NCBI GenBank assembly: GCA_027452205.1 | Contig: DAIDGV010000012.1 | Span: 124,001-188,000, forward strand | Origin: a candidate division FCPU426 bacterium | GTDB taxonomy: Bacteria > Oederibacteriota > Muellerivitia > Muellerivitales > Muellerivitaceae | Reading direction: 5' to 3' | DNA: 64,000 nucleotides | In this document: positions 47,472 to 58,426 of the stretch, piece by piece | Position numbering within the stretch: position 1 is the stretch's first letter | Layout: each line of letters opens with the position of its first letter | The notes under the pieces: generated by a model | Databases searched by the model: none | The model's input: the letters and a program-made list of their open reading frames with translations, nothing else | Told to the model about the DNA's origin: nothing | Translations under genes and position numbers: made by a program

Positions 47472-48488
47472 TTAGAGGACTGGATAGAACCAGAAAATCA
47501 GGCCGACCAGGGCGATGAAAGTTCCGCTGATGACCTCGCCGTAACGTTCCAAGGCCCCAAATTTCATTTTCTGAAGTCCCTGAGTTGAGTAAACACACAA
47601 GACCACATAGGTCACGATAGTGCTCAAGGCAAAGACCAGGGACATGACCAAAATGAGCCCTACCCCATATTTACCCGCCGCGAAAAAAGCCGGGATACCT
47701 TCCACCATCGGCGAAGAACCCAGGATCAATAAAAGCGCCGTTCGTTGGTTGGTTTTGGGGGCATGATCATGGGAATGTCCGTGGGAATGCTCTTCGTGTC
47801 CATGACCTTCGTGGGAATGTTCATGTTCCTTGAATTCGACTTCATAACTGTGGGAGTGATGGGCGTGGGAGACCGTTATCCGGACCTTGAATTGATGGGG
47901 TTCCGGGATCGGATCGATAGATTGCAGGTACCTGCCCTTGTTCTCGAACTTGAACGATTGTTTTTTTCCGTCGTCACGGATCGTTTCTAACTGGACCCGG
48001 TCTACCGGTATGCCGGTCAGCCGAAAATGAGGCGGCATACCCTGTTCATAAATGGATAACTCAAAAAGGCCGTCATCGGTCCTAACTTGGTGGAATTCAG
48101 GACCATGGATCTCACCCGCCGCCGTATCCATGAAAGTATGCTCGTGATGATGGTGGTGTCCATGGCCGCCTCCCCGCGTTTCCAGCCAAGAGGCAATCGC
48201 GATCCAAAGACCGAAACCGATCAAAGCGACGCTGGAAGCCAGGTCGACCAGATGACCAAAATGCGTCGCCACCGCAACACCCGCGAACCAAACCACCAAA
48301 GCGATCGCCAGGGTCGAAAGGACATGTCCCGTACCCGCTTTAATCGCCGCGCTGATCGTTTCAGTTTTGCTCCACTTTCTTTGTCGGGCGATCAAGGCGA
48401 TCGGGACCCAGTGATCCGGCACGATGGTATGAAGGACACCGACGACCGTCACGGCACTGATCAACAAAAAGGGCGCGCTAAAATTCAT
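47472..48488 (-). CDS. NicO/RcnA-type Ni/Co efflux permease with embedded beta-domain
   Basis: 338 residues. Helices at about 7-25, 50-72, 84-101, then three more at about 250-335. The first carries HTIVPDHW, resembling the HxxxxDH signature of NicO/UreH proteins. Between helices 3 and 4 lies a ~145-residue insert: a His run (HGHHHHHEHT, 109-118), a beta-rich domain (about 135-220, with FELSIYEQGMPPHFRL) like those in some metal efflux adaptors, and a second His-rich stretch (222-242). Encoded 24 bases downstream of a porin and an RcnR-like regulator gene, so nickel/cobalt export is inferred. Confidence 0.82.
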   Translation of the reverse strand: MNFSAPFLLISAVTVVGVLHTIVPDHWVPIALIARQRKWSKTETISAAIKAGTGHVLSTLAIALVVWFAGVAVATHFGHLVDLASSVALIGFGLWIAIASWLETRGGGHGHHHHHEHTFMDTAAGEIHGPEFHQVRTDDGLFELSIYEQGMPPHFRLTGIPVDRVQLETIRDDGKKQSFKFENKGRYLQSIDPIPEPHQFKVRITVSHAHHSHSYEVEFKEHEHSHEGHGHEEHSHGHSHDHAPKTNQRTALLLILGSSPMVEGIPAFFAAGKYGVGLILVMSLVFALSTIVTYVVLCVYSTQGLQKMKFGALERYGEVISGTFIALVGLIFWFYPVL

Positions 48489-48512
48489 TCATTTTCCTTT
48501 TGTTCGATTTAG

Positions 48513-49847
48513 TTATATTTCCAAGTGAGCCCGGCCCGAGACGATACCCACCGGTCCGCGAGCCTGATTATAGGCTGGATTCTGGATTCCCTGAAAGTCC
48601 AGGGTCAAACCCAACACCTTGAAAGGTTTATAGAGGTAATAGACTTCGAATAATTCTTCCGGCCCATAATTCAAGGCCCCGTCCCCGATATTGAAATCGG
48701 TCCCGCCCGCCTCTAAGTAGGCTTGATGCACGCTGGAAATCCCGCTGGCGGCGATCCCCAAACCCACCACATCATCAGGCCGTCCCCAACGATTACCTTT
48801 TAAAGCGGTTCCAAACGAGACATTCTGGTCCACCGCCACGAATTCCCAGGTCTCGGTGGTGCCGTCATTCCATCCGGCCCGGGCGAAAAAGCCCAGGTCA
48901 TCCCCGGCGGCCTGTTCCCATCCCAGTCCGAACCCTATCTTTTGCTCATAAGTACGGGTTGAAACTACGTTCGGATTCACCGGGGATTGGTTTAGCGCGG
49001 TTTGATAGTTACCCATGTTCGCTTGGTTGATGTAGCCCAGCAAACGCAGCTTGCCCGCGTTGTTATCCGCGCCATAGCGCCACTCGAATTCCATGTTCTC
49101 CGAATGGGCTTGGCCGATGTTCCAGTCATAATCCGGGCCATTGGCCACCGTGGAAACCAGCACCTCCGCGCCCCGCAGGGCCCAGGTCTTTTGGTTCAAT
49201 TCGGCCACCACACCCATGGTATAACCATGGGTATCCGCCGCGAAATCCCAGGCCAAATTGTCCACAAAGGTCAGGTTGATGAACTGGGTCCGGGCATCAT
49301 GGGCGTAAGCGTTATTATCAAAATAATCATTCAGGGCGAACTTGCCGGCGGTCAGGGTCAGGCGGGAAATATCCATCTTGGCGGCCACTTGGTTCTGGTC
49401 ATCGTCGATCTTCTCTTGCTCGCCGCCCAACCCCAGGACCTGTTGGAAATAGAACCGCGCGGTGTTGTAGGTCAGGCTGGCGCTGCCCACCTTGGAGATC
49501 TCGCCGTTAGAAAAATCGCCCAAGCCATTCACGCCGCTCAAGCCCGTACCCGCCGGGACTTCCGGGTCATAATAAACAAATCCACCGTCCCAGATCTTGG
49601 CGCCCAGGAAAAGGGTGGCCGTGAAAGAAGTCGCTATCTCCGGATTATTGCTCAGGCTGAAGGCTCCCGAGTAGGCAGCTGGGAAAGACCCGTGATATTG
49701 GGGAATGACGGTCGATTGAAAATGGTAGGTCCAAAGAGCCGGAACGAAGTCAACTGCCGACTCATCGGCCCGGGCCGAAACGCCGGAAAGCGCCAGCGCC
49801 ACCAAAAGGATCGCCTGACCGCCCTTTTTGAATAAGCTTAATTCCAT
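48513..49847 (-). CDS. OprB-like outer-membrane porin in the efflux cassette
   Basis: 444 residues. Signal peptide at 1-26 (VSARA-D), then a 16-18-strand pattern of alternating residues, with early block FHFQSTVIPQYHGSF (as YHFQSTVIPQYHGSFPAAYSG) matching carbohydrate-selective porins of the OprB type. Ends in a terminal strand GRAHLEI. It lies 10 bases after the regulator and 24 bases before the permease, so it may let metal or a metal complex leave the cell. Family assignment is fairly secure, role in metal export is inference. Confidence 0.8.
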   Translation of the reverse strand: MELSLFKKGGQAILLVALALSGVSARADESAVDFVPALWTYHFQSTVIPQYHGSFPAAYSGAFSLSNNPEIATSFTATLFLGAKIWDGGFVYYDPEVPAGTGLSGVNGLGDFSNGEISKVGSASLTYNTARFYFQQVLGLGGEQEKIDDDQNQVAAKMDISRLTLTAGKFALNDYFDNNAYAHDARTQFINLTFVDNLAWDFAADTHGYTMGVVAELNQKTWALRGAEVLVSTVANGPDYDWNIGQAHSENMEFEWRYGADNNAGKLRLLGYINQANMGNYQTALNQSPVNPNVVSTRTYEQKIGFGLGWEQAAGDDLGFFARAGWNDGTTETWEFVAVDQNVSFGTALKGNRWGRPDDVVGLGIAASGISSVHQAYLEAGGTDFNIGDGALNYGPEELFEVYYLYKPFKVLGLTLDFQGIQNPAYNQARGPVGIVSGRAHLEI

Positions 49848-49857
49848 AACTGTCCCC

Positions 49858-50133
49858 TTATTTCAGGTAAGTGCTGACGATCTCCATTAATTGCGCGGCG
49901 GCTTCCGTTTGCGCCCGAGAAGGTTTCTTCTTCGGGTCCAAGACATGGAAATGGATATGCTCATCGATCAATTCGGCCATCAAGGAATTCAAGGCGCCGC
50001 GACAAGCGGACAAATGCTGGAGAATGTGGATACAGTCTTCGTTGTTTTGAAGATGCTTCTCGACGGCCTTCACCTGTCCTGTCAGCCTTCGGGCCCGCAA
50101 AACCAACTTTTCTTTGTCGTGAATGACGTGCAT
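49858..50133 (-). CDS. RcnR-like metal-sensing repressor (CsoR/RcnR family)
   Basis: 91 residues from ATG 50133 (GGGGGAACC upstream); the in-frame start at 50193 lies in the promoter. The four-helix dimer fold holds His2, Cys34, His59 and His63, aligning with RcnR ligands His3, Cys35, His60 and His64, the nickel/cobalt fingerprint; CsoR would have Cys-His-Cys and FrmR would have Cys-Glu. First gene of the cassette, and probably represses it: a palindromic operator sits in its promoter. Confidence 0.87.
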   Translation of the reverse strand: MHVIHDKEKLVLRARRLTGQVKAVEKHLQNNEDCIHILQHLSACRGALNSLMAELIDEHIHFHVLDPKKKPSRAQTEAAAQLMEIVSTYLK

Positions 50134-50145
50134 GGTTCCCCCGCT

Positions 50146-50168
50146 ATTATCAAGGATGCCTTGATAAT
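50146..50168. repeat. Perfect 10-base inverted repeat in rcnR-like leader
   Basis: attatcaagg-atg-ccttgataat, a perfect 10-base stem with three-base loop between the start codon and the operator. On the transcript it is a hairpin of the 5' leader and could influence translation or be a second operator half-site. Confidence 0.8.
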
Positions 50169-50190
50169 ATACCCCCAGGGGGTATGTCAA
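50164..50190 (-). promoter_or_regulatory. Promoter with embedded CsoR/RcnR-type operator
   Basis: On the minus strand: TTGACA (50190-50185), spacer 15 bases, TATTAT (50169-50164). The spacer and edge hold ATACCCCCTGGGGGTAT, a perfect 8+8 palindrome (50169-50185) of C/G tracts flanked by AT pairs, the DNA type bound by CsoR/RcnR proteins, whose genes often sit immediately downstream. Occupancy would block polymerase directly. Confidence is from the match and position; binding is not shown. Confidence 0.78.
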
Positions 50191-50240
50191 CAATCAAAAG
50201 TGTTAATTATGAATTGAATCAGTGTGAACTAAAAGACAGA

Positions 50241-50509: not shown

Positions 50510-52318
50510 CTAGTTCTTGGAGGCCTGACCGCCGCCGCCACTACTGCCGCCGCCACCGCCGCCGCTGTTATCCGGACTGATGAAGAACTTTACGCCCAGC
50601 CGCACTTGGAAACCGGAGAAATCGATCGCCCCGCTGCCGCTGGCGCCGCCCGAATTGGTCAAAGGCGAGGCTTTGAAACCGGGATTGCTGCTGGTAACAG
50701 GGGTGAAAGTAAGGAAACGATAGTCGAGACCCAGGTCCAAGGCTGAGCTTTTCTGGCCGTCCAGGATAAATTCCAACCCCGCGCCCAGTTGGCCGCCCAG
50801 GTCGGTAGCTGAAAGGCTCGTGCCGGTACCATTCAGGACCGAGATGGTCACGCTGGAATCGAGCAGCGTATAGATGCCGCCCGAAGCGTTCAAGGTGAAG
50901 TTCGTGCTCTCATCCAAGGGGATCAATAACTTGAGCCCCAGAGAAGCGCCGACCGCTGTGGAATTCCATTGTTCTACTTGGCCTGAAGCGGTTACCGACT
51001 GGGAGAATTTGCGCAGCACCTCGCCCATCACACCCACTTGCCAGGTCGGGTCCAAGGCGTAGTCCATACCGCCGAAACCCGTTAAACCGAAAGGGAGTCC
51101 TTGGGACGTGTCGGCGCCGTAATATTGGGTCAGATCCGTGGCGTCCGGTAAAAAGCCGGTGACACCGAAATAAGGCAACCAACTGCCGCCTGTGGGCAGG
51201 CTCGGATAACCCTGATTCTTCGTGTTGAACAGCTTCTCATCTTCCGCGGTCATGGTCGCCGGTGCGTTGTTGACCGGGGCAACGGTGTCCGTGGAAGCGG
51301 CTGCGGACAGGAATTCCTTCGAGGAAATGACCTTGCCATCCTCGACGATATAGGCGTCATTCTTGAGCGAGTCGATCCAGGTATTGACCGCGTTGTCCTG
51401 CATTTGCTTTTTCAGGAAGATCTTGATGTCCGCCGCGGCCGAGTCAAAATCGGCCTTCCCGCGGGAAACCACTTTGACCACGTAGATGCCATCCGTAGCG
51501 CGCACCAACCCCGTCCCCGGCGCGGGCAAAGCGAAGACCCCTTCCGCCAGTTTGGCGTCGCCGATCTCGCCGCGTGAGACGGTCCCGATATCCCCGCCAT
51601 CCGCCGCGGACCCCGGGTCCTCGGAATATTTCTTGGCCAGGGCCGCGAAATTAGCGCCTTCCTTCACTTGCTTGAGCAGGCTCCGGGCCTGGGTCTCCAC
51701 TTGCTTGACCTCGCCGGCGGTCGCCTGGGGCGAGACCCGCAGCAGGATGATGGAGAACCGGACACGGTCATAATTGTTCGGGTGCTGGTCGTAATACTTG
51801 CGCGCTTCCTCGTCGGTCACGACGACCGAGCTGGGCAGGTCCATCTGCTTTTGGCGCATCATGTGGGCGGCCTTGATCCGGCGGGTCATCTTGTCCCGGA
51901 TATCCTGTTTCAGGTCGTCCAGGGTGATACCCTCGGCCTTCAGGCTGTCGTTGAATTCTTGGTCGGTGGCGAAGTTCTTCTTCATGGATTGGACCTGGTT
52001 ATCGACCTCCCGGTCCACCTCCCCCTCTTGCAGATCTATCTTTTCACGGTCCGCTTCTTCCGCCAGCAGTACCTCGCGGATGAAAGCTTCCTCCACTTGC
52101 TTCTTGGCCGCGTCATATTCGGCGGTGCCCGGAGGGGCCATTTTGGACTGTTGGGAGGCGAAATAGGATTGGATGGCCTCCTGCAGTTCCCCTTGGGTCA
52201 TGGCGTCTTGGTCCACCACCAGGGCGATGCTATCGACGATCTTGGCCCAGGCAGGCGCGAAGGCCAGTCCCAAAGCCAGTGCCGCCGCGAAAATGAAAAA
52301 ACGTTGGTTATTGCTCAC
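50510..52318 (-). CDS. SurA-type chaperone fused to a predicted outer-membrane barrel
   Basis: 602 residues from GTG 52318 (GGAGG seven bases upstream). Order: signal peptide (1-25, AFAPAWA), SurA N-terminal helical domain (about 26-165), one parvulin rotamase domain (about 185-287, with SEDPGSAADGGDIGTVSRG), a linker with few charges (about 288-410), then a ~165-residue region of alternating residues (about 415-580) that looks like an eight-strand barrel with final strand FQVRLGVKFFI, and a Gly/Ser tail (585-602). SurA proteins escort barrels to the BAM machine; here one chaperone would be tethered to its own barrel. I do not know this fusion from other genomes. Overlaps the preceding gene by 11 bases. 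Confidence 0.85.
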   Translation of the reverse strand: MSNNQRFFIFAAALALGLAFAPAWAKIVDSIALVVDQDAMTQGELQEAIQSYFASQQSKMAPPGTAEYDAAKKQVEEAFIREVLLAEEADREKIDLQEGEVDREVDNQVQSMKKNFATDQEFNDSLKAEGITLDDLKQDIRDKMTRRIKAAHMMRQKQMDLPSSVVVTDEEARKYYDQHPNNYDRVRFSIILLRVSPQATAGEVKQVETQARSLLKQVKEGANFAALAKKYSEDPGSAADGGDIGTVSRGEIGDAKLAEGVFALPAPGTGLVRATDGIYVVKVVSRGKADFDSAAADIKIFLKKQMQDNAVNTWIDSLKNDAYIVEDGKVISSKEFLSAAASTDTVAPVNNAPATMTAEDEKLFNTKNQGYPSLPTGGSWLPYFGVTGFLPDATDLTQYYGADTSQGLPFGLTGFGGMDYALDPTWQVGVMGEVLRKFSQSVTASGQVEQWNSTAVGASLGLKLLIPLDESTNFTLNASGGIYTLLDSSVTISVLNGTGTSLSATDLGGQLGAGLEFILDGQKSSALDLGLDYRFLTFTPVTSSNPGFKASPLTNSGGASGSGAIDFSGFQVRLGVKFFISPDNSGGGGGGSSGGGGQASKN

Positions 52319-53315
52319 GATGCCCCTCCAGGGCGGCCCCAATGACCGGGGCCACATCTTGTTTCACTTTGATCTTTGCTTTCTTCTTGAGGATAAGGAC
52401 CCACTGGTCAAAAGCCTCGTCCTGGGCCCTCTTCAAAAGCTCGTCATGGATCTGGTCCTGGACCTCCGCCAAAGTTCTCATCCGGCGGGGCCGCCACTCG
52501 ATCAATTGGAACAGATGATACCCAAAATCGTCCTTCAAAGGCTTCGAAATCTCCCCGGGCTTCAATTTCGCCAGCGCCGACAGGTAGGCCGGCGGCAGGC
52601 GGTCGGTCTCCATAAAGTGCCAATCCCCACCCTGGGACGAGTCCGGTTCCTGGGAAAAGGTCTCGGCTATTTTTGAGAAACCCTCCCCCTTTTTCAAGGC
52701 GGCCATCACTTGATCGAACCGCTGCTTGCGTTGAACCACCAGGTGCCGGGCCCTCACCGCTTCGGGCATCCAATAGTCGCCCAAATGGGACCAATAGTAA
52801 TCCTCCACTTGCCGGGCCGAGACATTCGTCTTGTCGTTCACTTCCTTCTTCACTAATTTCTGGACCAGTTTTTCCTGCAGCAATTTCCGTTTCCAAGACT
52901 CGACGCTCACGCCCTGGGTGCGCAGGATGACCAGGAAATCATCGGGCATGTCCTTGAACGCGCCGCGGAAAGCATCGTCCACCTCGGCCTGGGTCAGCTT
53001 CAGGCCCAACCGGCGGGCTTCCTGCACCAGGATATGACGGTCGATGACCTGCTCGAAGAGCCGCAATTTGATGGCCCGCATTTCCCCTTCGGACACCGCG
53101 CTGTAGTAGATCTTGATGAGACGGAACTCGTTGTCGAACTCCTCCAGTGAAATAGGTTCCCCATTGACCGTCACCGCGATCTTGGAAGGCTCCACCGGCA
53201 CCGGCGACAGGTCCACCGAGGGCGTGGCGGAACAAGCCGATAAAAAAAGGCCTAACCCCGCTGTCGCGAGGAGGCCTTTTAGGTGGTTTCGGTTTAAATG
53301 ACGGACATCAAACAA
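52308..53315 (-). CDS. Peptidyl-prolyl isomerase lipoprotein (parvulin, PrsA/SurA-like)
   Basis: 335 residues, TTG start at 53315 without a clear ribosome site. Lipobox LSAC (Cys28). N-terminal SurA-like helical region, then a parvulin domain (about 185-290) with FSQEPDSSQGGDWHFMETD and a C-terminal helix. Probably anchored in the outer or inner membrane and assists barrel folding with its neighbour fusion protein. Second of three similar genes in a row. Confidence 0.87.
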   Translation of the reverse strand: MFDVRHLNRNHLKGLLATAGLGLFLSACSATPSVDLSPVPVEPSKIAVTVNGEPISLEEFDNEFRLIKIYYSAVSEGEMRAIKLRLFEQVIDRHILVQEARRLGLKLTQAEVDDAFRGAFKDMPDDFLVILRTQGVSVESWKRKLLQEKLVQKLVKKEVNDKTNVSARQVEDYYWSHLGDYWMPEAVRARHLVVQRKQRFDQVMAALKKGEGFSKIAETFSQEPDSSQGGDWHFMETDRLPPAYLSALAKLKPGEISKPLKDDFGYHLFQLIEWRPRRMRTLAEVQDQIHDELLKRAQDEAFDQWVLILKKKAKIKVKQDVAPVIGAALEGHREQ

Positions 53316-53330
53316 GCTTCACCGCTTCAA

Positions 53331-53354
53331 CGGCGGGGCCTAGGGACCCCGCCG
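53331..53354. repeat. GC-rich hairpin between two chaperone genes
   Basis: cggcgggg and ccccgccg arms around a short loop, 66-base gap between chaperone genes. No U-tract follows on the minus strand, so an RNA processing or stability element is more likely than a terminator. Confidence 0.6.
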
Positions 53355-53381
53355 CGGGATCTTTCCGTTCGACCGGAAGAG

Positions 53382-54170
53382 TTACTTCTTTTTCGGCGCG
53401 CTGGGGGCCGCAGGAGCGGCGGAAACCGCCGGAGCGGGACTGCTTCCCTTGGCGTCCAATACATCCTGGGAAGGAGAAAGGCTATCCAGGTATTTCTTGA
53501 TCACGTCGTCATTGCGGACGATCGTTCCGCTGGCCTGCAATTGGTCCAGGAACTTCTCAGCCTGGATATTCTGCTTGATCTCTTTCTTGATGGAAGAATC
53601 GAGGGAGGAATAAGGACGCATCTTTTGACCCTGGGCCGAGGCTTGGGCCGAATATTGGGTATACCACTTCTGCATGTCCGCTTCGGACACCGGGACTTTT
53701 TCGACTTGGGCTGAGGCGAACCCGCGGGCTAACAGGACCTTCTTATAAGCGTCCTTATAGTCGTTCTCAACGCGCTTGACCGCGGCGATGTCCTGTTCCA
53801 GTTTTTCTTTTTGTTCCTTCACGCGGATATCGGCCTGGATGAGCTTGTTCTTCAGGTACTCATCGAAGTTCGGGTCCGAATAATTGGCCTTTTGGGCCGC
53901 TTGGATGATGAGCTCTTGGTTGATCAGGGTCTCCAGCACTGCCTTCACTTGCTGGGTGTTTTCCGGATCCACCGGGGTATCGAACACGCGAAGCAGGTCC
54001 AACTGCTTCATCCAGTCACCGAAGGTGATCTTATTGCCGTCCACGGTGGCCACCACTTGGCTGTCCGAGATACCGGCCTTGTTGCCGGTGAATTTGTCGC
54101 AAGCCCAACCCGCGCAGAAACAAAGGACAAGGGCGGCGGCGTAAACGGAGTATTTCAAGCGAGAAGACAT
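53382..54170 (-). CDS. SurA N-terminal-like protein without parvulin domain
   Basis: 262 residues. N-terminal signal with a weak lipobox-like end (GWAC, Cys24); helical region (about 40-205) with FGDWMKQLDLLR and ALVETLINQELIIQ is like the SurA/PrsA chaperone core; no parvulin block follows. C-terminal 25 residues are Ala/Pro/Ser-rich (APAVSAAPAAPSAPKKK). First gene of the three-gene chaperone unit, so a holdase for outer-membrane proteins is inferred. Confidence 0.82.
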   Translation of the reverse strand: MSSRLKYSVYAAALVLCFCAGWACDKFTGNKAGISDSQVVATVDGNKITFGDWMKQLDLLRVFDTPVDPENTQQVKAVLETLINQELIIQAAQKANYSDPNFDEYLKNKLIQADIRVKEQKEKLEQDIAAVKRVENDYKDAYKKVLLARGFASAQVEKVPVSEADMQKWYTQYSAQASAQGQKMRPYSSLDSSIKKEIKQNIQAEKFLDQLQASGTIVRNDDVIKKYLDSLSPSQDVLDAKGSSPAPAVSAAPAAPSAPKKK

Positions 54171-54812: not shown

Positions 54813-57800
54813 TTATAAAAGGTCTTTTCCCAGGTCCTGGAAAAGCTTTTGAACCGCTTCCATCTGTTTTTCCGGGCCTTCGTCACCCTTCATGACACGG
54901 AAAGAGACCGCATTCGGGTCTTGGGGGGCAAAACGAATGCGGGAAGGGGGCCATTGTTTGAACCACTTTTCCACCTTGTCCGAAGAAGGCGTTAGGTCCG
55001 GATGCCACTGCAGGCTCACCCAGCCGCCTTGGGCTTCCAACCGCTGGATCCCCAGTTTCTTGGCCTGGGGACGGAAGGTGGCCACCTTGAGCAGCATTTG
55101 AGCTTCCAAAGGCAAGGGCCCAAAACGGTCAACAAGCTCTTCCTCGATCTGTTTGATCTGTTCGGGCTCGTTCACCTCCGCCAAGCGGCGGTAGAACTCG
55201 ATCTTGACCGTTTCGTCCTCGATGTAATCCTTAGCGAAGTAGGCGGTCACGCCCAAGGATAAGAGCGGCGTGAAGTCGGCGGCGGTCTCTTCGCCCTTCA
55301 TGCGGGCCACTTCCTGGCTGAGCATGCGGCTGTAAAGGTCGAACCCGATCGAATCCATGTTGCCATGCTGCTTGGCGCCTAGCACGTTCCCTGCGCCGCG
55401 AATTTCCATATCTTTCATCGCCACGTGCATCCCCGAGCCGAGAGAGGAGAATTCCTGCAGTACTTCCAGCCGCTTTTGGGCCAATTCCCGCAAGGTGGTG
55501 TGCCGGGGATAAAAGAAATAAGCGTAGGCTTGTCTGTCCGTGCGGCCCACCCGGCCTTTAAGCTGATAAAGCTGGGCCAGTCCAAAGGCGTCTGACCTCT
55601 CCACGATAAGCGTGTTCACGTTAGGCATGTCCAGACCCGACTCGATGATCGAGGTGCAGACCAGGACGTCATATTCCTTATCGACGAAATCCATCATGAC
55701 CGATTCCAGTTCATGTTCCGTCAACTGGCCATGGGCCACGGCCAATTTGGCCTCAGGCACGATCTTGTGCAGGCGGTCCGCGATGCGTTCGATGTCTCGC
55801 ACGTGGTTATGCACGTAAAAGACCTGGCCCTCTCGGTTCATTTCCCGGCGGATGGCCTCGGCTACCAGTCGGTCATCCAGGGGGGATACTTGCGCCGCTA
55901 CTGACAAGCGGTTGCGGGGCGGGGTGTCGATAACGGAAATTTCACGGATGCCCGACAAAGACATGTGCAGGGTCCGGGGAATGGGGGTGGCGGTCAAGGT
56001 CAACACATCCACATCGTGCTTGAGGGACTTCAGCTTTTCTTTTTGGGCCACGCCGAACCGGTGTTCCTCGTCGATGATGAGAAGTCCCAAGTTGGCGAAC
56101 TTCACGTCCTTGCCCAGCAAGCGGTGGGTGCCGACCAAAATATCGACTTTCCCTTCCCGGGCCTGTTCCAAACTCTTCTTGATCTCCTTGGGGCTCTTGA
56201 ACCGCGAGAGCATCTGGATCTCGACCGGGTATTCGGCCATGCGCTCTTTGAAGGTGTTGTAATGCTGTTGGGCCAGGATGGTGGTGGGAACCAGCAAAGC
56301 GACCTGCCGTTTGTCTTGCACCGCTTTAAAGGCGGCCCTCATGGCCACTTCGGTCTTGCCGTAGCCCACGTCGCCGCAGACCAACCGGTCCATCACCTTG
56401 GTGGACTCCATGTCCTTTTTAACGTCCCGCACCGAGGTGTATTGACCGGGGGTCAGTTCATAAGGGAAAGAGTCCTCGAATTCGAGCTGCCAGGGGGTGT
56501 CCGGCGAGAAGGGCCTTTTGTGCAGGACCTGCCGGGTGGAATAGAGCGCCATTAATTCCTGCGCGATGGCTTCGACCTCGCGTTTGACCTTGGCCTTCGC
56601 CCGGGTCCATTGCTCCCCACCCAGTTTGGTCAGGGTCGGCGAACCCTCAGCGCCGATATAGCGCTGGATGAGGGCGATCTGGTCCGAGGGCAGGTAGATC
56701 TTCTCGTTGTCGGCGAACTCGAGTTGGATATATTCCCGGGTGATGCCGTCGATCTCTAAAGGTGTCAGGCCCCGGTAGATACAGATACCCGAGTCGACAT
56801 GCACCGTCCAATCGTTGATGGAGATCTCATTGAGCGAATTGAGCGGCTTGCCGCCCGAAACCGCCCTTGCCCGCCGGTGACGGCGACCCCGGTAACGGCG
56901 GAAAAGATCGTGATCCGGCAGGACCATTAGGTTGATGCCGTCGAAAGCGAAGCCTTGTTCGATCTCGCCCAGGATCATGTGGACCTGGGGATTGTCCTTC
57001 ACCATCACATCCTCATCTTTGAGCAGCTCGCTCAGCCGTTCCCTTTCACCCTTGTTGTGGCACCACAAAAGAACTTGGTATTGGCTGGCCAGGAACCGCT
57101 TCAGGTCGTTGACGAAAGTGGGGAACTTTCCGTAGTAGGGGGACACGGACCGACCCGGCACGCTGTGGCTCGCGGCCGGCGCTTCACCAAAAAGATCTTG
57201 GTCTAATTGCCCTATGGCGATCGCTTGTCCCTTGGACACCGCTTTTTTCACGAACTGGATGTCGGCGAAAAGGTCTTCGGTCGGAAAAAGGTCCGCCTGT
57301 TCTTCCTTGGCTTGTTTTTCACTGGCGGCCAACCGGTCCTGGAACTCTTCCCATTTACGTTCAAAAGCCAGGGGCTCCATCAGGATGAGCCGGGTCTTGG
57401 CGGGCAGATAATCAAACAGGCAGGCTTTTTTCTCTAAAGCGCCAACGGCTTTCCAATGCCAGCCCGGAAATTGATGGGTGGTGCTGAATAACTCCAGCGC
57501 GTCCTTGGCCCAGCGGGAATCCTGACCGGCCTTTTCCTTCAAGGCATGGCGCAGGTTATAGCGGGCCTCATCGTTCATCACGACTTCGTTGGCCGGGAAG
57601 ATGAAGACTTCGTCCAAGCTGCCGCTGGATCTTTGGTTAAGAACGTCCAGGGGCCGCACCGATTCCAGGGTATCACCAAAGAATTCCAACCGCACCGGGC
57701 CCGAGGGTGAGCCCGGCGAGGCGATGTCGAGGATGCCGCCCCGGGAAGCGAACTGTCCCAACCGCACCACTTGTTGCGTCGACTCATAACCCATGGCGAT

Positions 57801-58286
57801 CAACCGCTGTTTGATGTCCGCCGGGGCATCCTGGCCTTTTCGCAGGATCATCACATGACCGATCCATTCGTCCGGCGGCAGGGTCCTTTGCAGGGCCCCC
57901 ATCAGCGGCGCCACCACGATGCAGGCTTCCTCTTGAAGCAGTTGATAGAAGGCTCTTTGCCGCTCCCCGATCAAGCTCGGGTCCGGAACCTCCACGTCTT
58001 GCGGAAGGATCTCCCACGAGGGACAAAGATAAACCGGCACCCCGGGAAGCCAACTCGATAAGTCGTCCTGAAGAAGGACCGCTTCTTCCCGGCTGGGCGT
58101 GAGGATAAGCCAAGGATTTTTTTCGTTGAGCCTTTGGTAGTTCCAGGCCAAGTAAAAAGCCTTCGCCGACCCGGGCAGGCCATGCACCAGGGTTTGGGGC
58201 TTACGGGCTTTTAGGCTTTCCAGCGCTTCTTGGGCCGCGGGCCAGTCGAGTTTCGCGAAATCAAAAGGTAATGTGTTGTTTTCCAT
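54813..58286 (-). CDS. mfd: Transcription-repair coupling factor Mfd
   Basis: 1157 residues from ATG 58286 (GTG 58319 is possible). UvrB-like N-terminal module (1 to about 320), RNA-polymerase interaction domain (about 490-570, with VHVDSGICIYRGL), SF2 helicase (about 600-930: GDVGYGKTEVAMRAA, DEEH in IDEEHRFG, TATPIPRTL, GRVGRTD) and the TRCF C-terminal domain. It removes stalled RNA polymerase and recruits excision repair. A basic linker (RRYRGRRHRRARA) precedes the interaction domain. Standalone gene. Confidence 0.98.
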   Translation of the reverse strand: MENNTLPFDFAKLDWPAAQEALESLKARKPQTLVHGLPGSAKAFYLAWNYQRLNEKNPWLILTPSREEAVLLQDDLSSWLPGVPVYLCPSWEILPQDVEVPDPSLIGERQRAFYQLLQEEACIVVAPLMGALQRTLPPDEWIGHVMILRKGQDAPADIKQRLIAMGYESTQQVVRLGQFASRGGILDIASPGSPSGPVRLEFFGDTLESVRPLDVLNQRSSGSLDEVFIFPANEVVMNDEARYNLRHALKEKAGQDSRWAKDALELFSTTHQFPGWHWKAVGALEKKACLFDYLPAKTRLILMEPLAFERKWEEFQDRLAASEKQAKEEQADLFPTEDLFADIQFVKKAVSKGQAIAIGQLDQDLFGEAPAASHSVPGRSVSPYYGKFPTFVNDLKRFLASQYQVLLWCHNKGERERLSELLKDEDVMVKDNPQVHMILGEIEQGFAFDGINLMVLPDHDLFRRYRGRRHRRARAVSGGKPLNSLNEISINDWTVHVDSGICIYRGLTPLEIDGITREYIQLEFADNEKIYLPSDQIALIQRYIGAEGSPTLTKLGGEQWTRAKAKVKREVEAIAQELMALYSTRQVLHKRPFSPDTPWQLEFEDSFPYELTPGQYTSVRDVKKDMESTKVMDRLVCGDVGYGKTEVAMRAAFKAVQDKRQVALLVPTTILAQQHYNTFKERMAEYPVEIQMLSRFKSPKEIKKSLEQAREGKVDILVGTHRLLGKDVKFANLGLLIIDEEHRFGVAQKEKLKSLKHDVDVLTLTATPIPRTLHMSLSGIREISVIDTPPRNRLSVAAQVSPLDDRLVAEAIRREMNREGQVFYVHNHVRDIERIADRLHKIVPEAKLAVAHGQLTEHELESVMMDFVDKEYDVLVCTSIIESGLDMPNVNTLIVERSDAFGLAQLYQLKGRVGRTDRQAYAYFFYPRHTTLRELAQKRLEVLQEFSSLGSGMHVAMKDMEIRGAGNVLGAKQHGNMDSIGFDLYSRMLSQEVARMKGEETAADFTPLLSLGVTAYFAKDYIEDETVKIEFYRRLAEVNEPEQIKQIEEELVDRFGPLPLEAQMLLKVATFRPQAKKLGIQRLEAQGGWVSLQWHPDLTPSSDKVEKWFKQWPPSRIRFAPQDPNAVSFRVMKGDEGPEKQMEAVQKLFQDLGKDLL

Positions 58287-58426
58287 GGACGAATTTTTTC
58301 TCTTTTTCAGTAAACGCACTAAGGGCTTTCAGTAGACGCCGCGGCGCGGCGAGAACCGAAAACCCTGGGAAACGCTTGAATTGTCCGAGGAGTTTGCCCG
58401 CCCCGTCGGCCCATGTCAATCACAGG

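What the first reader, a model, noticed from the sequence alone, without database searches (positions are those of the whole stretch)
50510..52318. SurA-type chaperone joined to a predicted outer-membrane barrel in one protein
The protein has signal peptide, SurA_N and one parvulin domain (about residues 26-287), then a linker and a ~165-residue stretch of alternating hydrophobic and polar segments resembling an eight-strand barrel. SurA normally ferries other proteins to BAM; a chaperone tethered to a barrel could be an outer-membrane-anchored folding device or a self-delivering autotransporter-like system. I do not recall this architecture from known SurA proteins.
Basis: partly seen in the sequence, partly recalled or inferred. 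Interest (0 to 1): 0.66.

Follow-up and report, generated by a model that had tools for sequence, protein, structure and literature searches.

The report
SurA chaperone fused to membrane barrel
One family of soil bacteria (candidate phylum FCPU426) makes its only SurA-type outer-membrane-protein chaperone as a single protein joined through a flexible linker to an eight-stranded outer-membrane barrel, so the chaperone is probably anchored where it works, much like chimeras that were built artificially in the laboratory.

Summary
The ORF at 50510-52318(-) (602 aa) has a signal peptide, SurA N-domain, one parvulin domain and the SurA C-helix. A 42-residue linker follows, then an OMP_b-brl barrel (Pfam 31.1 bits, cut-off 28.7). 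AlphaFold with six orthologues gives eight strands, matching OmpA/OmpW/OmpX.

It is not an assembly artefact: all seven complete orthologues in the GTDB family (four genera) carry the fusion. A sister family has the same mfd-g3-g2-g1 operon, but g1 stops after the chaperone. The barrel's nearest relatives are TPR-linker-barrel proteins of the same clade, so the barrel is a reusable outer-membrane module that was added to the chaperone gene in the family's ancestor.

No other SurA-type gene is seen in this genome, and both active-site histidines of its parvulin domain are missing. Best reading: a barrel-anchored, probably non-catalytic SurA held on the inner face of the outer membrane near BAM. 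The design matches laboratory SurA-OmpX/SurA-EspP chimeras (Fenn et al. 2024), including a linker of about the length that let EspP finish folding. Function is inferred; no experiment exists.

The parts
52244..52318 (-). GTG start and signal peptide, residues 1-25 (likely cleavage after PAWA), start overlapping the end of the upstream PPIase gene by 11 nt
   Evidence: sequence; conserved GTG start and overlap in L006, L007, L008, L009, L010
51839..52237 (-). SurA N-terminal chaperone domain, residues about 28-160
   Evidence: Pfam SurA_N_3 and SurA_N; PDB SurA 1m5y E 1.7e-18
51464..51805 (-). single parvulin (rotamase) domain, residues 172-285; both catalytic-type histidines replaced (Ile, Tyr)
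   Evidence: Pfam Rotamase_3 1.8e-18; alignment to E. coli SurA; histidines absent in all 7 orthologues
51335..51457 (-). SurA C-terminal helix region, residues 288-328 (QDNAVNTWIDSLKNDAYIVEDG)
   Evidence: aligns with the E. coli SurA C-terminus; conserved, 54% mean pairwise identity over 288-332
51209..51334 (-). non-conserved linker, residues 329-370 (42 aa here, 50-70 aa in orthologues)
   Evidence: 22% mean pairwise identity over residues 333-368, no invariant column
50579..51208 (-). eight-stranded outer-membrane beta-barrel, residues 371-580, with a near-invariant periplasmic turn (PLDESTNF; S is G once) and a terminal beta-signal-like strand
   Evidence: Pfam OMP_b-brl; AlphaFold model; Foldseek to OmpA/OmpW/OmpX; 51% mean pairwise identity among orthologues
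50513..50578 (-). Gly/Ser-rich C-terminal tail after the last strand, only in this genome (orthologues end a few residues after the strand)
   Evidence: alignment
52308..53315 (-). upstream operon gene g2: lipoprotein-type SurA_N + parvulin PPIase that keeps both catalytic-type histidines
   Evidence: Pfam; sequence: LSAC lipobox, RARHL and FGYHL motifs
53382..54170 (-). upstream operon gene g3: SurA_N-like chaperone domain without parvulin, with a conserved N-terminal Cys (AGWAC)
   Evidence: Pfam SurA_N_2 2.4e-10; Cys conserved in relatives
54813..58319 (-). mfd, first gene of the conserved cluster
   Evidence: ORF; same order mfd-g3-g2-g1 in relatives

Best explanation
The protein is the SurA-type chaperone of this organism, anchored in the outer membrane by its own C-terminal eight-stranded barrel. 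It is secreted by Sec; the barrel is folded and inserted by BAM like any small outer-membrane protein, leaving both its N- and C-terminus in the periplasm. The SurA core then hangs on a flexible 42-70 residue leash on the inner face of the outer membrane, where it can reach BAM and receive unfolded outer-membrane proteins in trans. Because its parvulin domain lacks the catalytic histidines, it acts as a holding chaperone rather than an isomerase; catalysis may come from the neighbouring lipoprotein PPIase g2. Shown by computation: domain anatomy, conservation of the fusion, relationship of the barrel to a modular barrel family, no other SurA-type gene detected in the genome. Inferred: membrane insertion, topology, proximity to BAM, service in trans, lack of isomerase activity.
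For: Domains and barrel fold. Fusion in all 7 complete family members, with the linker unconserved (22% identity) but chaperone (60%) and barrel (51%) both conserved, so both halves are under selection while the spacer looks like a mere leash. The orthologous operon without the barrel exists in sister family G013 (mfd-g3-g2-g1, g1 318 aa), followed by argC/argJ and not by a barrel gene: the barrel was added to a complete SurA gene. Nearest barrel relatives carry TPR domains in place of SurA, so the barrel acts as a general carrier of periplasmic modules. Only three rotamase genes in the genome: g2 with a lipobox, this protein, and a PpiD-like protein with an N-terminal membrane segment. One BamA with five POTRAs is present to insert the barrel and take clients. 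In E. coli the SurA core docks on POTRA-1, a SurA-OmpX chimera is accepted by BAM, and with EspP's 76-residue spacer the barrel completes folding while still joined to SurA (PMC11366764).
Against: No experiment. The barrel model is moderate (pLDDT 69, six sequences) and full-length modelling from one sequence failed, so no contact between chaperone and barrel could be assessed. The predicted extracellular loops are as conserved as the strands (49% against 50%), which a mere anchor would not require. Two Skp-like proteins are present, so this need not be the main OMP chaperone.
Confidence: 0.62

Rival explanations
1. Cis-chaperone: the SurA part serves mainly the folding of its own barrel, which has the real function (surface contact, envelope stability, small-molecule passage).
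For: Extracellular loops are unusually well conserved. In an E. coli SurA-OmpX chimera the SurA core holds its own attached barrel (PMC11366764).
Against: Paralogous barrels of the same family exist without a cis chaperone (TPR-barrels). It sits in the ancestral SurA operon as the only SurA-type gene, and losing trans service would leave the cell without SurA.
Confidence: 0.15
2. The fusion is a permanent part of the BAM machine: the barrel sits beside or docks on BamA as an accessory barrel and the chaperone domain is a fixed delivery arm.
For: Near-invariant periplasmic turn PLDE(S/G)TNF and conserved loops suggest a specific partner. SurA core binds POTRA-1 in E. coli (PMC11366764).
Against: No direct test; the shared barrel family with TPR paralogues argues for a general module. 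The P-L part of the turn is partly shared with TPR-barrels.
Confidence: 0.13
3. The chaperone is released by proteolysis in the disordered linker, giving a free SurA and a separate barrel.
For: The linker is low-complexity, variable and rich in Ala, Ser, Thr and Pro.
Against: No conserved cleavage motif in the linker; nothing obvious would then keep the fusion in seven species.
Confidence: 0.06
4. Artefact: two genes merged by an assembly or frameshift error.
For: None found.
Against: Same fusion, same start and same gene order in relatives from different assemblies.
Confidence: 0.01

Closest known systems
SurA (E. coli, PDB 1m5y, 2pv3)
   Same: Signal peptide, N-domain, parvulin domain and C-terminal helix in the same order; sequence match E 1.7e-18 over the core.
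   Different: One parvulin domain instead of two, catalytic-type histidines absent, and a linker plus outer-membrane barrel added at the C-terminus; E. coli SurA is soluble.
Engineered SurA-OmpX and SurA-EspP chimeras (PDB 8qpv, 8qp5; PMC11366764)
   Same: Same order, SurA then barrel; OmpX is also an eight-strand barrel; the EspP version has a 76-residue spacer comparable with the natural 42-70.
   Different: Man-made to trap a folding intermediate on BAM; the natural protein is conserved, and its barrel is presumably meant to finish folding.
TPR-linker-barrel proteins of the same bacterial family (L062, L063, L064, L065, L068, L070, L087)
   Same: Homologous barrel (E 1e-27 to 1e-41 with the SurA-barrel profile), N-terminal periplasmic domain, flexible linker.
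   Different: One to two TPR pairs in place of the SurA part; end at the terminal aromatic residue or very close to it.
Known outer-membrane barrels with N-terminal periplasmic domains (PgaA, BcsC, Slam with TPRs; BamA with POTRAs; FapF) - from general knowledge
   Same: Periplasmic module before a C-terminal barrel.
   Different: Larger barrels that export or insert something; none carries SurA.
OmpA
   Same: Eight-strand barrel with a periplasmic domain on a linker; best fold match.
   Different: OmpA has the barrel first and a peptidoglycan-binding domain last; none is found here.

Membership tests
SurA chaperone | SurA N-domain after a signal peptide | tested here: met
   Pfam SurA_N 35.5 bits (cut-off 30.8) and SurA_N_3 43.3 (27.2)
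SurA chaperone | at least one parvulin domain followed by the C-terminal helix that completes the core | tested here: met
   Rotamase_3 at 172-285; alignment reaches the SurA C-terminus
SurA chaperone | two parvulin domains, P2 catalytically competent (E. coli type) | tested here: not met
   one domain only; both histidines replaced in all 7 orthologues
SurA chaperone | NCBIfam equivalog PRK10770 (SurA proper) | tested here: not met
   65.8 bits against a 394 cut-off: a SurA-type protein, not the proteobacterial equivalog
SurA chaperone | binds unfolded OMPs and delivers them to BAM | not testable with these tools
   needs experiment
OMP_b-brl / eight-strand OmpA-OmpX-type barrel | family profile above curated cut-off | tested here: met
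   PF13505 31.1 bits against 28.7
OMP_b-brl / eight-strand OmpA-OmpX-type barrel | eight antiparallel transmembrane strands, fold match to solved barrels | tested here: met
   model with 8 strands; OmpA, OmpW, OmpX hits; moderate confidence
OmpA proper | C-terminal OmpA-like peptidoglycan-binding domain | tested here: not met
   no such Pfam match in the protein
Autotransporter (type V secretion) | C-terminal autotransporter barrel family and secreted passenger | tested here: not met
   no autotransporter-domain match up to E 1; N-terminal part is a SurA-type periplasmic chaperone
TPR-linker-barrel family of this clade | homologous barrel | tested here: met
   align over nearly all of 232 profile positions
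TPR-linker-barrel family of this clade | N-terminal TPR repeats | tested here: not met
   SurA domains instead

The most novel reading that the evidence does not exclude
A natural, membrane-anchored SurA: the chaperone for outer-membrane proteins is itself an outer-membrane protein, permanently stationed near BAM, so delivery works by local capture at the membrane and not by a diffusing chaperone. The barrel module is exchangeable between TPR and SurA domains.
Probability: 0.5. Interest if true: 0.72.

Novelty: new variant of a known kind. Interest (0 to 1): 0.6.

Why it matters
How SurA finds BAM and how long it stays during barrel insertion are open questions, and informative structures needed artificial SurA-OMP fusions. 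Here evolution has kept such a fusion, with a spacer, in a whole bacterial family. It offers a ready-made test of whether SurA can work while tethered to the outer membrane, and it suggests that the periplasmic chaperone step can be built into the membrane itself.

Tried and rejected
Gene-merging artefact: rejected, seven genomes carry the fusion. Fusion by read-through into a neighbouring barrel gene: no support in the sister families where downstream sequence could be read; argC/argJ follow g1 directly in three (L089, L090, L093), L091 has other genes before them, L092 has unrelated genes, and no barrel profile hit was found in those loci. Autotransporter: no family match. Same fusion elsewhere: among the listed matches in 289 genomes only the family's own members matched the full profile (the list was cut at the weak end); four long SurA-like ORFs elsewhere were read and proved to be an upstream reading-frame extension (L083), two-parvulin SurA (L084, L086) or a SurA with a C-terminal extension not resembling a barrel by eye (L085). 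Structure of the full protein from one sequence failed (pLDDT 38). First scan of genome contigs with the single sequence found nothing; the alignment found six family loci. One alignment call was a wrong input and is not used. Literature searches gave no natural fusion.

Full report
What is there. The ORF at 50510-52318 on the minus strand encodes 602 residues from a GTG codon. It has an ordinary Sec signal peptide, a SurA N-domain (Pfam SurA_N_3 30-146, SurA_N 28-144), one parvulin domain (Rotamase_3 172-285) and an OMP_b-brl barrel match (403-578, E 3.2e-7, above the curated cut-off). Against the PDB the chaperone part finds E. coli SurA (1m5y, E 1.7e-18), and the alignment runs on to the SurA C-terminal helix. 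So a complete one-parvulin SurA comes first, then a linker, then the barrel.

The barrel is well supported. AlphaFold on the C-terminal part with six family sequences gives eight strands (16-25, 47-57, 62-80, 83-105, 108-128, 138-154, 161-171, 205-214 of the segment; mean pLDDT 69, pTM 0.66; the lowest confidence lies in loops and the tail). Foldseek places it with OmpA (E 2.4e-7; TM-score by target length 0.70-0.77), OmpW and OmpX. The strand order gives short periplasmic turns (DP, DEST, DGQKSS) and mostly longer outer loops, and puts both ends of the barrel in the periplasm, which is what a periplasmic chaperone domain would need (inference from the model).

It is conserved. All seven members of that family whose gene is complete, from four genera, carry the same fusion (593-654 aa open frames); the eighth is cut by a contig end inside the chaperone. 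Mean pairwise identity is 60% in the SurA and parvulin domains, 51% in the barrel, and 22% in the linker, which varies from 42 to 70 residues. The gene order mfd - g3 (SurA_N only) - g2 (lipoprotein-type PPIase) - g1 (this gene) is kept in the relatives whose flanks could be read.

Where the barrel came from. In sister family G013 the operon is the same but g1 is a plain 318-residue SurA; in other sister families g1 is likewise a chaperone only, mostly 320-370 residues. Where the downstream DNA could be read, arginine genes (argC/argJ) or other genes follow, and no barrel gene is near. The nearest relatives of the barrel domain (E 1e-27 to 1e-41) are seven proteins of the same family of bacteria with TPR repeats, a linker and this barrel; three are in this very genome. 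More distant relatives in the phylum look like barrel-only proteins. In a tree of 21 barrels the seven SurA barrels form one group (support 94/98), so one fusion event in the family's ancestor is the simplest account. Some nearly complete relatives (G005, G006) have the SurA-barrel and no TPR-barrel.

How common. Among the listed matches in 289 genomes searched with the full-length profile, only the family's own members matched across both parts. Four long SurA-like ORFs elsewhere were read and are not SurA-barrel fusions. This samples bacteria thinly and would miss a fusion to an unrelated barrel if the ORF were not among those listed.

How it probably works. No other SurA-type gene was seen in this genome; the other two rotamase genes are g2, with a lipobox, and a PpiD-like protein with an N-terminal membrane segment. 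So every parvulin found here appears to be membrane-bound. One BamA with five POTRA domains and two Skp-like proteins are present. In this protein and its orthologues the two histidines that mark active parvulins are replaced by Ile and Tyr, and some sister g1 proteins lack them too, so a holding rather than an isomerase role is likely and probably older than the fusion; g2 keeps both. I infer that BAM inserts the barrel, after which the SurA core stays leashed at the inner face of the outer membrane and serves other outer-membrane proteins near BAM.

The closest precedent is artificial. [quoted passage not shown] coli SurA; the barrel engaged BAM but could not complete folding, and they state that extra linker would be needed. 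With EspP, whose 76 residues before the barrel act as a spacer, the barrel did complete folding (PMC11366764). The natural protein has the same order, the same barrel size class as OmpX and a spacer of 42-70 residues.

What is not shown. No experiment bears on insertion, topology, contact with BamA, or service in trans. The conserved outer loops (49% identity, equal to the strands) hint at some function beyond anchoring.

Noticed in passing
L062, L063, L064, L065/L087, L068, L070: A clade-specific family of TPR-linker-eight-strand-barrel outer-membrane proteins, in tandem arrays in G004 and G002 (one array member in each has a different barrel behind the same TPR part); function unknown.
   Followed up: partly
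window 52308-54170: Two further SurA-type genes in the operon: g2 a lipoprotein PPIase with catalytic-type histidines, g3 a SurA_N-only protein with a conserved N-terminal cysteine; with g1 they could form a relay from inner to outer membrane (speculative).
   Followed up: partly
window 50513-50578: Gly/Ser-rich tail after the last barrel strand, only in this genome; the open frame of a short S4-domain-like protein (sub-threshold Pfam match) follows directly and may overlap the end of the gene.
   Followed up: no
window 47472-50193: Metal-sensitive repressor (CsoR/RcnR type, Pfam Trns_repr_metal), OprB-type porin and a His-rich membrane protein without Pfam match lie together; relative L036 has a similar membrane protein beside an RND-type efflux gene. 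Looks like a metal-handling cluster.
   Followed up: partly
G008 (same order, other family): A 97% complete genome with no hit at E 0.001 to the SurA part of this protein.
   Followed up: no
L085: SurA-like protein of a distant genome with an unrelated ~190-residue C-terminal extension.
   Followed up: no
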